From positions 1 to 64,000 of the forward strand of contig JAJEHX010000035.1 in NCBI GenBank assembly GCA_022823465.1: 64,000 bases of DNA, read 5' to 3'. Below the pieces are notes generated by a model, which saw only the letters and a program-made list of their open reading frames with translations, was not told the origin of the DNA and searched no databases. This document shows positions 7,175-11,294 of the stretch, one piece after another; the stretch's first letter is position 1; each line of letters starts with the position of its first letter. Origin of the DNA: Candidatus Latescibacterota bacterium. GTDB taxonomy: Bacteria > JAAXHH01. Both the position numbers and the translations under genes were made by a program.

Positions 7175-7186
7175 CGGGATTTGCCC

Positions 7187-7960
7187 ATGAACGGCACGGA
7201 AATCGTACGGCGATACGAAGAAGACGGCTATGTCGTCCTGCCCGGAGTCATCGACGGCGGCCTGACCGCCGAAGCCCAGGGGCATGTCGAGTGGATGGGA
7301 CGGAAATATCCCGACGTCCGGCCCGAGCAGTACCATCACCACCTGATCGTGGACGATCCGTTCTGGATCCGCCTCTGCACCGACCCGCGGCTGATCGACG
7401 TCATCGAACCCTTTCTGGGACCCGACATCGCGCTATTCGCGGCCCACTACATCAGCAAGCCCCCAAGGGACGGGCAGCCTGTGCTGTGGCACCAGGACGG
7501 GAACTACTGGCCGCTGGAACCCATGGAGGTCATCACGATCTGGCTGGCCGTGGACGACTCCACCCCGGAGAACGGATGCATGCGGGTCATCCCCGGCAGC
7601 CATCGGGAACAGAAACTGTTCAGGCATCGATCGTCGGAGGGCGAGAACGTACTGCGTTCGGAACTCGACCTGAAGGTGGATGAAACCAGTGCGGCGGACG
7701 TCATCGTGCCGGCGGGCGGCGTATCCCTGCACGATCCCTATCTGATTCACGGGTCGGAGGCCAACCTGTCCGACCGGCGCCGGTGTGGGTTGACCCTCCG
7801 GTACATCCCCACGACCACGCGCATCAAGCGTGAGAACTTCCCCGCCTACCTGTGCCGCGGCAAGGCCGTGGACGGCGTCAACTCCTATCCGCCCCTTCCC
7901 CGGTTCCGGCCCGGCGATCACTATCCCTTCGAAGGGTGCGACCGGCCGCCGTGGATGTGA
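7187..7960 (+). CDS. Phytanoyl-CoA dioxygenase (PhyH) family protein
   Basis: Encodes 257 aa from ATG 7187; a TTG two codons earlier is possible. The iron triad is H102-x-D104 (LWHQDGNYW) with distal H188, and R199 is placed to bind 2-oxoglutarate. GCMRVIPGSH at ~130-139 is the typical strand of the PhyH double-stranded beta helix. It is the third gene of the 5962-7960 set. The final codons (CDRPPWM) are part of a 19-bp sequence repeated twice more after the stop, so the C-terminal end may have been shaped by that duplication. Confidence 0.88.
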   Translation: MNGTEIVRRYEEDGYVVLPGVIDGGLTAEAQGHVEWMGRKYPDVRPEQYHHHLIVDDPFWIRLCTDPRLIDVIEPFLGPDIALFAAHYISKPPRDGQPVLWHQDGNYWPLEPMEVITIWLAVDDSTPENGCMRVIPGSHREQKLFRHRSSEGENVLRSELDLKVDETSAADVIVPAGGVSLHDPYLIHGSEANLSDRRRCGLTLRYIPTTTRIKRENFPAYLCRGKAVDGVNSYPPLPRFRPGDHYPFEGCDRPPWM

Positions 7961-7997
7961 CCGGCCGCCGTGGAATGGACGGCCGCCGTGGAATGGA
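7942..7997. repeat. Tandem repeat, 18-19 bp x 3, over a stop codon
   Basis: Units at 7942-7960, 7961-7979 and 7980-7997 share CCGGCCGCCGTGGA and end in TGTGA or ATGGA. The first contains the stop codon of the dioxygenase gene, the other two are noncoding. The repeat fills the gap before the convergent Mur-ligase-like gene. One of several such post-stop duplications in this window. Confidence 0.9.
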
Positions 7998-8009
7998 CGG
8001 CACGATTCC

Positions 8010-9368
8010 TCAAAGTACCTCCATATCCTTCAATTCCTGCCTGACCGCGTACATGGCGCCTTCGGTGGCGAGGACCCACAGCCGGTCACCCGGAGTGAGC
8101 CGGCGCATGAGATCGTGGAATACGTCGCTGACGTCCGATGCCGCGGCCATCTCTTCGGCGTCCATCTGCTCGTCCATCAGGGCCAGATGCGCACCGCCCG
8201 CGCCGGCCACGTGCAGGGATCTCGACGTGTCCAGCATGCCTTCCAGGTCGGCGTCCACGATCCACGGTCCGTTTGGTCCGTCCTGCACAGCCTCGTCGAG
8301 GAGAAACAGGAAATGACCGCGCCTGCGGTCCAACAGACACGTTCTGAGCGCTTCCTGCAGCGACGTCCTGTTCTTGATGGTCATCAGGCGTGCTTCCCGC
8401 TCATGGATCACCACCCGTTCGTCCCGTCCATCCGTCGCTGTCACCGATTCGAGTCCCTTGCGTATCGTCACGGGACTCAGGCCGAGGGCGACGGCCGCGG
8501 CGGCCGCGGCAACCGCGTTATACACGTTGTGAAGTCCCGTGAGTTGTAGACACACGTCCAGGGGCCCCCGCGGCGTGATGAGACGGAAACGGGATGCTTC
8601 CGTTCCCAGGTCAACGTCGATGGCGTAGATCGCAGGCAACGGCCGTTCCCAACCGCAGCCTTCACAGGCGTAGTCTCCCAGATGGGCCAGACAGGCGATA
8701 CGATAGGCGAGGGCGGCGCCGCACCGTTGGCAGGGCACCTCCGGCGTAGGTGCATGCGCCTGATTCAAACGCTCGTCCTCCACGCCGAAGTAGGTCAGCC
8801 TGGGCGGCACGCCGCGTGTGAAACCGCCGCATACGACAGGATCGTCCGCGTTCACGAGGATGTTGCTTCCCGCGGCCATGGCGCCGAACCAGTCGCACCA
8901 TTTCCCGGCCAGGGCGACGGGATCGGTCCCCTGGCCCAACTCGTCGTCGTAGAGGTTGTTCAGCACGAGTGTCTGTGGACTGCACAGCCTGATCGCCCTG
9001 TCCAGCGTACCGGATTCGAAGCCGAAAATGCCGTAGTCCGCCCGGATCATGCCGCGGCGGTCCGCCGCCTGAACCAGGGTGGAGACTACCTCGTCTATGG
9101 AAGGGGCGATGTCTTCGGGATAAAGCGTGCGGGCATCGGCCTGCCGGAGCATCGCGGCCAGGATGCGGCAAGTCGTGTGCTTGCCGTTCGTACCGGTTAC
9201 ACCGGCGACGCCTTGTCCTAACTGTCTTACGAGGGATCGGGTCAGGCCGGGCCACGCGGCGGCAGTGAGGGTGCCGGGAGGGATGCGTCCGCGAGAGAAA
9301 TCAAACAATTCGGCTGCTCTCGCGACGGATTTGTCAATCGAAAGGGCAGCCGATCTGAGTATACGCAT
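8010..9368 (-). CDS. MurT-like Mur ligase domain protein
   Basis: Encodes 452 aa. The ATP-binding loop TGTNGKHTT (58-66), the NNLYDDELGQ segment (~137-146) and four cysteines C213, C216, C235, C238 forming a zinc ribbon inside the Mur central domain are the hallmarks of MurT, which with the amidotransferase GatD amidates D-Glu of lipid II. The C-terminal DUF1727 region ends near W369-I-V-D-A-D-L-E. Two oddities: the loop has H where T is usual, and the KNPAG motif common in MurT reads KNRTS (332-336). No gatD gene is near. It may have a partner elsewhere or ligate something else. Confidence 0.75.
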   Translation of the reverse strand: MRILRSAALSIDKSVARAAELFDFSRGRIPPGTLTAAAWPGLTRSLVRQLGQGVAGVTGTNGKHTTCRILAAMLRQADARTLYPEDIAPSIDEVVSTLVQAADRRGMIRADYGIFGFESGTLDRAIRLCSPQTLVLNNLYDDELGQGTDPVALAGKWCDWFGAMAAGSNILVNADDPVVCGGFTRGVPPRLTYFGVEDERLNQAHAPTPEVPCQRCGAALAYRIACLAHLGDYACEGCGWERPLPAIYAIDVDLGTEASRFRLITPRGPLDVCLQLTGLHNVYNAVAAAAAAVALGLSPVTIRKGLESVTATDGRDERVVIHEREARLMTIKNRTSLQEALRTCLLDRRRGHFLFLLDEAVQDGPNGPWIVDADLEGMLDTSRSLHVAGAGGAHLALMDEQMDAEEMAAASDVSDVFHDLMRRLTPGDRLWVLATEGAMYAVRQELKDMEVL

Positions 9369-9403: not shown

Positions 9404-9811
9404 TCATATCCTGGCGCCGCGCCATTCGTCTCTGTCACCGGAAATATCGACAATGTTGCCATCAGGATCGATGGCCTTGAAGGCGATTTCCGGCGGCGTC
9501 TCGGAGGATATGGCGTCCCGGCCCTTCACGGTCTTCGGCGCTTCCGCCCCCCAGTTCCGCACCCTGTGCCAGGCGGCCTTGAGGTCATCCACCAGTACGC
9601 CGAAGTGGATGTACTCCTCGCCTTCCTCGAGCGTGGGCCGCGACGGATCGTCATGGGGCAGCAGCGTGATGTTGGCGGTGCCGTCGCTGAGATCAACGGC
9701 CTCGCCGTTTCCCCGCCGGCCGATAAAGGTAAAACCGATCACTTCCTCATAAAAGCGCTGTGAGACCGACACGTCTCGACACCGCAGTGCGAGGTGACGC
9801 AGAAAAGCCAT
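9404..9811 (-). CDS. VOC (glyoxalase/bleomycin-resistance) family protein
   Basis: Encodes 135 aa. It begins FLRHLALRCRDVSVSQRFYE, the usual first betaalphabetabetabeta module, and ends with a DPDGNIVDISG strand supplying the last metal-ligand position. VOC proteins are metal-dependent lyases, isomerases, dioxygenases or drug-binding proteins and the sequence alone does not decide between them. It lies 35 bp from the Mur-ligase-like gene on the same strand and could share its transcript. Confidence 0.8.
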   Translation of the reverse strand: MAFLRHLALRCRDVSVSQRFYEEVIGFTFIGRRGNGEAVDLSDGTANITLLPHDDPSRPTLEEGEEYIHFGVLVDDLKAAWHRVRNWGAEAPKTVKGRDAISSETPPEIAFKAIDPDGNIVDISGDRDEWRGARI

Positions 9812-9869
9812 TACGCATCCCTCCGGAGGTTATCGTTCTAACCCGTCCTCGTCTCAAAGAGCCACTGGG

Positions 9870-11294
9870 TTACAGTCTCTTTTCTTTGGCGATCTCCTCG
9901 ATGGCGCCGATGAACTGGTCGGTCTGTGCATCGGTCACCATGATATGCATCGAAGTCCGGTTGGCGTCCCAGTTGATCTCGTCGTGCGTGACGTTCCGGA
10001 TATAGATCCTGTGGCGGTCCCACAGCATGTTGTTGAGATCGCGCGTACCCACGCCCCTGACCTTGAAGGAGACGAGCGCCGCGCTCATGCGGGGATCGGG
10101 CGAACTGTACACGTCCACGCCGTCCATATTGCGCAGCGCGTTGGCCACCCGCACGGCCTGGTAGCGGTTCCGGCTCTCGACGGCGGCCGGGCCGATCATG
10201 TTATGGAAATCCAGCGCCGCGTCGATGGCGACACGGGCCGGGGCGTTGGAGGAACCTCGCAGTTCGAACTTGGAGGCCCCCGCCAGGTATTCGTCATAGT
10301 AAATCTTGGCGAACCCCGTGGGTTCCTGCCCGTACATGGACAGGCCGTTGACCGGTCCGGAGTAGAGCGTCGGCCAGACGCGGTCCAGGATGTCCTCTTT
10401 CACGTAGAAGAAACCCGTGTACATGGAAGCCATCATCCACTTGTGGCACGGACCCGCGTACATGTCGCAACCCAGGTCGTGCATGTCGAGGTCGAGCATG
10501 CCCGGAGGCTGCGCCCCGTCGACCAGGGAAATGATCCCCTTCGACCGGGCCATCTCGCAGATTTCCTTCACGGGAAGGACAAGCCCGTCGCCGTAGTTGA
10601 CGTGGCAGAAGCTGAGCATTTTCGTCCGCGGCGTGATGGCGGCCTCGAAGGCCTTGATCAGCGCGTCGGGACTGTCGGGCGGATGGTACTCCGGTGACGA
10701 CAGGTCGATCATGACGGTCTTCGTCCCCTGGCGGACGGCCCGGAGGTTGATGGGCTGCACCCCGCTGGAGTGATCATGATTGGTCGTGACGATCTCGTCG
10801 CCTGGCTCCATGTCGACGCCGAAAGTGCCGAAGACCATGCCTTCCGTCGTGTTGTTGGTGAAGGCGACTTCATTCGGCTTGCAGCCGATGTACTTGGCCA
10901 TCTTCGCACGCATCTGCTTCCGGAAGTCGCTGTTGTAGACGTAGCTCGTGTAGCTCTTGTAGTCCGAGTTCGCCCCGTTCAGCGCATCGATCTGCGCCCG
11001 GTGCACCGGGGCCGGGGACGGGCCGCGCGTCCCGGTGTTCATGTAGGAAACGCCGTCACGGACGATGAACTGGTCAGACACCCAGTTCCAGTATGCGACG
11101 TCGTCGGGCTCCGGGAGATGGTCTTCGGGCATCGGCGGTTTCGCCCCTGCCTTGCCGGTCATGGACAGCAGGGCCGTACCCGCGGCAAGGCCTCCCGCGA
11201 TCCGCCCGATAAACCCACGCCGCGACAACGCGTTCAGCTTTTCCGGATCCTCGTATTTCGGATCGAAATTCAAACCGGACTCTTCCGTAATCAT
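9870..11294 (-). CDS. Tat-exported class V aminotransferase-like enzyme
   Basis: Encodes 474 aa. A twin-arginine motif SRRGFIG (24-30) followed by a hydrophobic stretch and AGAKP predicts export, already folded, by the Tat system. The body is a class V PLP enzyme of the isopenicillin-N-epimerase/cysteine-desulfurase-like group: D259-G-A-Q binds the pyridine nitrogen and the cofactor lysine is K285 in GPCHKWM. An exported PLP enzyme of this type recurs in Poribacteria/Latescibacteria-like genomes; its substrate is unknown. A promoter is seen 120-150 bp upstream. Confidence 0.85.
   Translation of the reverse strand: MITEESGLNFDPKYEDPEKLNALSRRGFIGRIAGGLAAGTALLSMTGKAGAKPPMPEDHLPEPDDVAYWNWVSDQFIVRDGVSYMNTGTRGPSPAPVHRAQIDALNGANSDYKSYTSYVYNSDFRKQMRAKMAKYIGCKPNEVAFTNNTTEGMVFGTFGVDMEPGDEIVTTNHDHSSGVQPINLRAVRQGTKTVMIDLSSPEYHPPDSPDALIKAFEAAITPRTKMLSFCHVNYGDGLVLPVKEICEMARSKGIISLVDGAQPPGMLDLDMHDLGCDMYAGPCHKWMMASMYTGFFYVKEDILDRVWPTLYSGPVNGLSMYGQEPTGFAKIYYDEYLAGASKFELRGSSNAPARVAIDAALDFHNMIGPAAVESRNRYQAVRVANALRNMDGVDVYSSPDPRMSAALVSFKVRGVGTRDLNNMLWDRHRIYIRNVTHDEINWDANRTSMHIMVTDAQTDQFIGAIEEIAKEKRL

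What the first reader, a model, noticed from the sequence alone, without database searches (positions are those of the whole stretch)
8010..9368. MurT-like ligase without GatD and with altered motifs
The zinc ribbon and DUF1727 region mark this as MurT-like, but MurT works only with GatD, which is normally adjacent. Here neither neighbour is GatD, the P-loop has H in place of T, and KNPAG reads KNRTS. The organism also looks double-membraned. It may be a paralogue that ligates or amidates something other than lipid II.
Basis: partly seen in the sequence, partly recalled or inferred. Interest (0 to 1): 0.5.

Follow-up and report, generated by a model that had tools for sequence, protein, structure and literature searches.

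The report
MurT relic without its catalytic residues
In a group of uncultured two-membraned bacteria, a two-protein enzyme that normally adds an amide to the cell wall seems to have lost its active sites and then one partner gene, yet the remaining protein is still preserved by selection, so it probably does another, non-catalytic job.

Summary
The ORF is real, on the minus strand (8010-9368, 452 aa), and is a MurT by descent: in an 88-sequence tree the 15 full-length MurTs of its phylum group together (100/100), and it is the only MurT_C hit in its genome. GatD was found in 0 of 12 genomes of its genus but next to murT in the 4 other phylum genomes held (frameshifted in one). In two of these gatD lies between murT and the same Phyh gene, so deletion in place is likely.

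In 73 of 73 outside relatives the catalytic residues are canonical; G014, in the same phylum, keeps them. The other 14 phylum sequences have lost Glu108 (now Gly), Asn85 and most of the gate loop, and the three GatDs among them have Gly for the nucleophile Cys94. The genus also lost Thr60 and gatD. Nucleotide contacts, zinc ribbon and fold remain. dN/dS in the genus is 0.18, near the true MurE (0.17).

Best reading: a maintained pseudo-ligase, probably nucleotide-binding, no longer amidating lipid II. Its present job is inferred, not shown.

The parts
8010..9368 (-). murT-derived gene, 452 aa, proposed pseudo-ligase
9177..9179 (-). codon 64, His in place of Thr60 (Mg2+ ligand; T60A inactive in S. 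aureus MurT, PMC6113224)
9102..9104 (-). codon 89, Pro in place of Asn85 (predicted acceptor contact; N85A inactive in S. pneumoniae, PMC6085368)
9021..9023 (-). codon 116, Gly in place of Glu108/110 (Mg2+ ligand; E108A inactive, PMC6113224)
8922..8948 (-). residues 141-149, degenerate gate loop (RDQLDRYGE in nearly all relatives)
8655..8732 (-). Cys4 zinc ribbon, C213 C216 C235 C238, retained
8367..8375 (-). residues 332-334 KNR (KNP in 73 of 73 outside relatives)
8271..8273 (-). codon 366, Asn in place of Asp349, the proposed third member of GatD's catalytic triad; N, D or G in the genus
8160..8213 (-). residues 386-403, 18-residue block invariant in 11 of 11 genus sequences
7961..8009 (.). 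49-bp gap between the Phyh and murT stop codons, where gatD sits in G013 and G014
7181..7960 (+). phytanoyl-CoA-dioxygenase-like (Phyh) gene, named by recall, that anchors the synteny; convergent with murT

Best explanation
This gene descends from an ordinary murT-gatD pair of the phylum. In every full-length phylum sequence held except G014's, MurT has lost Glu108, Asn85 and most of the gate loop, and where GatD survives its nucleophile is Gly (shown by sequence; placing these losses on one branch is parsimony). In addition gatD is frameshifted in G013, has lost its catalytic His in G012 and was not found in the genus, where MurT has also lost Thr60 and lets Asp349 vary (shown). The remaining MurT therefore very probably cannot form the acyl-phosphate and does not amidate lipid II (inferred from published mutants of S. 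aureus and S. pneumoniae). It is nevertheless held by purifying selection (shown), with its nucleotide contacts, zinc ribbon and fold intact (shown by sequence and by a predicted model). I propose a non-catalytic, probably nucleotide-binding protein with a structural or regulatory role, possibly still at the cell wall; that role is inference only.
For: Catalytic residues: T60, E108, D112, E113, D349 and P323 are canonical in 73 of 73 outside relatives; in 15 full-length phylum sequences E108 is Gly in 14 and T60 is H, Y or C in 12. Of 73 columns conserved in at least 97% of the outside set, G014 keeps 71, G013 52, G012 46, G015 46; 34 are kept by all 11 genus sequences, 31 are changed in all 11 and 8 are mixed. 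Kept in 15 of 15: K59, N132, N273, R304, K321, N322; N270 in 14 of 15. GatD: profile hits in 4 of 16 phylum genomes, 0 of 12 in the genus; Cys94 is C in 71 of 72 outside GatDs (1 gap) but Gly in G012, G013 and G015; C94G is a published dead mutant (PMC3266927 passages). Deletion in place: 24-108 bp between the aligned ends of murT and Phyh in 12 of 12 genus genomes, with gatD between them in G013 and G014. Selection: median dN/dS 0.177 over 36 pairs of 9 genomes, against MurE 0.167 over 10 pairs of 5. Fold: pLDDT 83.1, pTM 0.88, best Z 34.4 to S. pyogenes MurT. Peptidoglycan genes murC, D, E, F, mpl and ftsW are present.
Against: No biochemistry exists here. One acidic residue remains at the D112 position (Glu118), and His64 could conceivably bind metal. 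22 of 31 replaced columns are invariant for the new residue (71%), about the rate for all columns (298 of 451, 66%), so this shows constraint on the protein, not special constraint on those sites. dN/dS of murT (0.177) is higher than in all five neighbouring genes that gave 36 pairs (0.052-0.168), so constraint is somewhat weaker. Retained contacts do not prove nucleotide binding. The G013 frameshift rests on one metagenome assembly.
Confidence: 0.68

Rival explanations
1. Re-targeted active ligase: the protein keeps ATP chemistry with different metal ligands (Glu118, His64) and joins or amidates another acceptor without GatD.
For: P-loop Lys, adenine contacts, Arg304 and Lys321 kept; purifying selection like MurE; new residues such as Gly116 and Pro89 held constant through synonymous changes.
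Against: Both Mg2+ ligands (T60, E108) and acceptor residues N85 and E113 are lost; single mutants of T60, E108 and N85 and a replacement of D112 and E113 by serines abolish activity in the studied enzymes (PMC6113224, PMC6085368). I noticed no substitute catalytic motif, but did not search for one systematically.
Confidence: 0.2
2. Decaying pseudogene on its way out, following GatD.
For: dN/dS above all five well-sampled neighbours; long branches of 0.86 and 0.82; gatD itself decayed or vanished.
Against: Open and full length in 11 of 12 genus genomes; in G009 the match is cut by the contig end. dN/dS 0.10-0.24 in all 36 pairs; 34 of 73 near-invariant columns kept by all 11.
Confidence: 0.07
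3. It still amidates lipid II, using free ammonia or another glutaminase.
For: Ammonia can replace glutamine in some amidotransferases (general knowledge, not tested); peptidoglycan synthesis genes are present.
Against: Mg2+ ligands, acceptor Asn and most of the gate loop lost; the only GATase_3 hits are HisH and PurQ.
Confidence: 0.05

Closest known systems
MurT of the lipid II isoglutaminyl synthase GatD/MurT (S. aureus, S. pneumoniae, S. pyogenes)
   Same: Domain order, Cys4 zinc ribbon, fold (Z 34.4 to 9sqj), common descent through a clade that includes G014's canonical pair
   Different: No GatD found; T60, N85, E108, E113, most of the gate loop and the GatD-triad Asp349 lost
GatD of the related genomes G012, G013, G015
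   Same: Ancestral partner gene, next to murT
   Different: Nucleophile Cys94 is Gly in all three, His189 is Gln in G012, reading frame shifted in G013; not found in this genus
Archaeal MurT-like of Methanopyrales and Methanobacteriales
   Same: Reported in species that have no GatD (PMC11915815, passages seen)
   Different: Reported to branch basal to MurT; here the loss happened inside a lineage with a canonical MurT. Archaeal sequences were not compared here
PAP11/MurE-like subunit of the plastid RNA polymerase
   Same: A Mur-ligase fold in a non-cell-wall complex (8r6s, 9epc, 8xzv among the matches; 9epc)
   Different: A MurE relative in plants, not MurT; its loss of catalysis is recalled, not read

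Membership tests
MurT (by descent and architecture) | Mur ligase middle domain plus MurT_C domain | tested here: met
   41.3 bits (cut-off 24) and 25.3 bits (cut-off 25)
MurT (by descent and architecture) | Cys4 zinc-ribbon insertion | tested here: met
   C213, C216, C235, C238 invariant in the 11 phylum sequences aligned
MurT (by descent and architecture) | Branches with canonical MurTs | tested here: met
   Groups with G014's canonical MurT, 100/100 support; the tree held no MurC-F outgroup, so the root was not tested
MurT (by descent and architecture) | NCBIfam equivalog cut-off | tested here: inconclusive
   127.5 bits against 800, but canonical G014 (256.8) and the Chloroflexi L046 (240.8) also fall far short
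Lipid II isoglutaminyl synthase (functional GatD/MurT) | GTNGKT P-loop with both Mg2+ ligands T60 and E108 | tested here: not met
   H64 and G116; T60 and E108 in 73 of 73 outside relatives
Lipid II isoglutaminyl synthase (functional GatD/MurT) | Acceptor-site residues N85, D112, E113 | tested here: not met
   P89, E118, S119, (E118 is still acidic)
Lipid II isoglutaminyl synthase (functional GatD/MurT) | Asp349 completing the GatD triad | tested here: not met
   N366 here; in the genus N 8, D 2, G 1 of 11
Lipid II isoglutaminyl synthase (functional GatD/MurT) | GatD partner encoded in the genome | tested here: not met
   Profile hits in 0 of 12 genus genomes; GATase_3 hits of G000 are HisH and PurQ
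Lipid II isoglutaminyl synthase (functional GatD/MurT) | Amidates lipid II | not testable with these tools
   Needs an enzyme assay or muropeptide analysis
Archaeal MurT-like | Branches basal to MurT | not tested
   No archaeal MurT-like sequence was fetched; the report was seen in passages only

The most novel reading that the evidence does not exclude
A MurT-family pseudoenzyme: a two-protein cell-wall amidotransferase in which both active sites died, by parsimony on one branch, while both proteins persisted, after which the glutaminase was dropped and the ligase was kept as a nucleotide-binding, non-catalytic sensor or scaffold of the envelope in a diderm lineage. I found no earlier report of a bacterial one in the listings.
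Probability: 0.5. Interest if true: 0.65.

Novelty: new variant of a known kind. Interest (0 to 1): 0.5.

Why it matters
GatD/MurT is reported essential in S. aureus and S. pneumoniae (abstracts of PMC3266927 and PMC6085368) and is described as a catalytic pair. Here the held genomes look like stages of a dismantling: G014 intact; G015, G012 and G013 with altered active sites but both genes or a broken gatD; then the genus with MurT alone. The ligase appears to outlive its chemistry, which suggests that MurT has, or can acquire, a function separate from amidation, and these natural variants would let that be tested. It also warns that a murT hit by itself should not be annotated as peptidoglycan amidation.

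Tried and rejected
Paralogue: rejected, since only one MurT_C hit exists in the genome and one match per genome in 16 of 16 phylum genomes. A hidden gatD: not found by two GatD searches (which covered 10 genus genomes, G014, G015 and four outsiders, all 16 held genomes of the phylum) nor by tblastn of five GatD queries on the loci around murT in 12 of 12 genus genomes, where the best hit had E 0.008 and looked like chance. Single assembly error: rejected because the same state recurs in separate genomes. NCBIfam cut-offs as a test of function: uninformative, because canonical MurT and GatD also fall below them.

Literature. The listings (25 of 43 papers listed; 10 of 24; 10 of 48; 1 of 1; 12 of 4,232; no paper) showed no title or abstract reporting a catalytically dead or GatD-less bacterial MurT; only open-licence PMC papers are held, and unlisted papers were not seen. 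(plastid PAP11) was seen as a listing only. PMC3266927, PMC3267633, PMC6085368, PMC11915815 and PMC12993501 were seen as passages, PMC6113224 as passages and one section. PMC3267633 says the murT-gatD syntenic block is widespread among bacteria but not a universal feature. PMC12993501, on sponge Latescibacterota, holds none of the three record names that I looked for.

Limits of the counts. G009's MurT is a 118-residue fragment and was left out of residue counts and the tree. The dN/dS comparison used 9 of 12 genus genomes (5 for MurE); two neighbours gave one pair each, and the MurD gene had no partner and gave none; MurC, MurF and Mpl were not compared. In one search the column first taken for N85 was one place off; one search has the right one (Pro89). 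A simple motif search missed the Cys or His in some outside GatDs and was replaced by a profile alignment. In one search GatD was sought within the fetched flank of at most about 4 kb, so 'near' does not always mean adjacent. The model used 46 sequences; no coordinate file was seen in the script folder, so pocket geometry was not examined. In the tree, the pairing of G013 with the genus has weak support (90/41), and G012 groups with G015 rather than with its own family (98/82), so the order of later losses is unsure.

Full report
WHAT WAS CHECKED. The gene is real and lies on the minus strand, 8010-9368, 452 aa. It matches Mur_ligase_M and, just over the cut-off, MurT_C; its best solved relatives are the MurTs of S. 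pneumoniae, S. pyogenes and S. aureus. The genome, 3.86 Mb in 55 contigs and 98% complete, has a single MurT_C hit.

THE ORGANISM. The held genomes of its phylum number 16: twelve of one genus, two others of the same family and two of the same order. BamA is found in 6 of 6 genomes tested (over the cut-off in 5) and LpxC in 4 of 6, both over the cut-off in this genome; G014 and G015, 83-85% complete, gave no LpxC. So this organism is double-membraned by gene content. Peptidoglycan synthesis looks ordinary: MurC, MurD, MurE, the recycling ligase Mpl and FtsW are over their cut-offs; MurF is split over a contig end and its larger piece scores 287.8 bits against 288.6.

NO GATD. The two GATase_3 hits of the genome are HisH and PurQ. 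A GatD profile finds nothing in 12 of 12 genus genomes and hits in the 4 other phylum members, in two pieces in G013. In 12 of 12 genus genomes the aligned ends of murT and of the same Phyh gene lie 24-108 bp apart. In G013 and in G014 gatD sits between those two genes; in G012 and G015 gatD is next to murT but the Phyh gene was not seen in the stretch held. The simplest account is deletion in place. Outside the phylum a GatD frame was found within the fetched flank in 72 of 73 loci; the exception is a contig that ends 236 bp after murT.

THE CATALYTIC RESIDUES. The S. aureus and S. pneumoniae work names the residues and reports that T60A, E108A, N85A, a change of K59 to Ala and a change of D112 and E113 to Ser abolish activity, and that D349N severely reduces it (PMC6113224, PMC6085368). 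In 73 outside relatives T60, E108, D112, E113, D349 and P323 are all canonical, and so is N85. In the 15 full-length phylum sequences only G014 keeps the full set. Glu108 is Gly in the other 14. Thr60 is His in 10 and Tyr in 1 of the genus, Cys in G013, Thr in G012, G014 and G015. Asn85 is Pro throughout the genus and Ala or Gly in G012, G013 and G015. Asp349, which is proposed to complete GatD's triad, is N, D or G in the genus but D in the other four. By contrast K59, N132, N273, R304, K321 and N322 are kept in 15 of 15 and N270 in 14 of 15. So nucleotide contacts survive while metal, acceptor, gate and GatD-triad positions are lost.

THE ORDER OF EVENTS. The 88-sequence tree puts the 15 phylum sequences on one side of a branch (100/100), G014 apart from the other 14 (100/100, branch 0.86), and the genus on a second long branch (0.82); the root was not tested. 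The three GatDs of G012, G013 and G015 all have Gly for Cys94, the same change that was used to inactivate S. aureus GatD (PMC3266927). Parsimony puts this and the loss of Glu108 on the 0.86 branch. G012's GatD has also lost its His, G013's is frameshifted, unless that is an assembly error, and the genus has no gene. GatD of G013 (downstream piece), G014 and G015 is 60-67% identical between pairs, against 43-52% for their MurTs, which suggests that GatD was held for some time after its nucleophile was gone, or lost it late. G012 does not fit this: its GatD is 47-51% identical to the others and its MurT 42-57%.

SELECTION. Median dN/dS of murT in the genus is 0.177 (36 pairs of 9 genomes, range 0.10-0.24), close to the true MurE (0.167, 10 pairs of 5 genomes). 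It is above all five neighbours with 36 pairs: a membrane protein 0.168, Phyh 0.118, aminotransferase 0.085, VOC 0.062 and enolase-like 0.052; two further neighbours gave one pair each, 0.071 and 0.194 (gene names by recall). An earlier count on 11 sequences gave 0.176 over 55 pairs. Of 31 columns changed away from the family consensus in the whole genus, 22 are fixed for the new residue and 17 of these show synonymous codon turnover; but 298 of all 451 columns are invariant too, so these sites are no more fixed than average. The gene is maintained, somewhat less strictly than its neighbours.

STRUCTURE. The model (pLDDT 83.1, pTM 0.88) matches MurT chains best: Z 34.4 to S. pyogenes MurT with AMPPNP and 33.7 to S. 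pneumoniae. A fold match shows no function. Among the lower matches is the MurE-like subunit of the plastid RNA polymerase, a precedent for a Mur-ligase fold outside the cell wall.

INTERPRETATION. By descent and architecture this is a MurT; by the tested residues and the missing partner it is not a lipid II isoglutaminyl synthase. I judge a maintained pseudo-ligase most likely, a re-targeted ligase possible, and decay or ammonia-driven amidation unlikely. Its actual role is unknown; nucleotide binding and a structural or regulatory role are inference. A published survey finds bacterial MurT only in Bacillota, Actinomycetota, Caldisericum exile and one Chloroflexota species, and reports archaeal MurT-like proteins in species without GatD (PMC11915815 passages). 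GatD-less relatives have thus been reported, but I saw no report of a bacterial one in the listings, which showed only part of the matching papers.

Noticed in passing
L027 7117-9348 (G014): A murT-gatD pair with canonical active-site residues in a member of this phylum, outside the groups in which a recent survey (PMC11915815, passages) found bacterial MurT.
   Followed up: partly
window 8160-8213 (minus): Residues 386-403 are invariant in 11 of 11 genus sequences; the end of the block is poorly modelled (pLDDT under 50 at 399-409). It may mark a new function.
   Followed up: no
L025 3596-4397 (G013): gatD is split by a shift of reading frame in this single metagenome assembly; a real lesion and an assembly error cannot be told apart here.
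   Followed up: partly
window 7944-7998: A unit of 18-19 bases occurs three times in a row across the end of the Phyh gene and the short gap to murT (read by eye).
   Followed up: no
L106, L068, L072, L116: Records titled Bifidobacterium breve, Chlamydiae, Burkholderiales and Amnibacterium carry MurTs that branch among Solirubrobacterales or other Thermoleophilia and Actinobacteria; probably misbinned or misnamed.
   Followed up: no
window 9404-11294 (minus): A VOC-family gene (35 bp upstream of murT) and an aminotransferase-like gene, both named by recall, lie in the same direction; an operon is possible.
   Followed up: no
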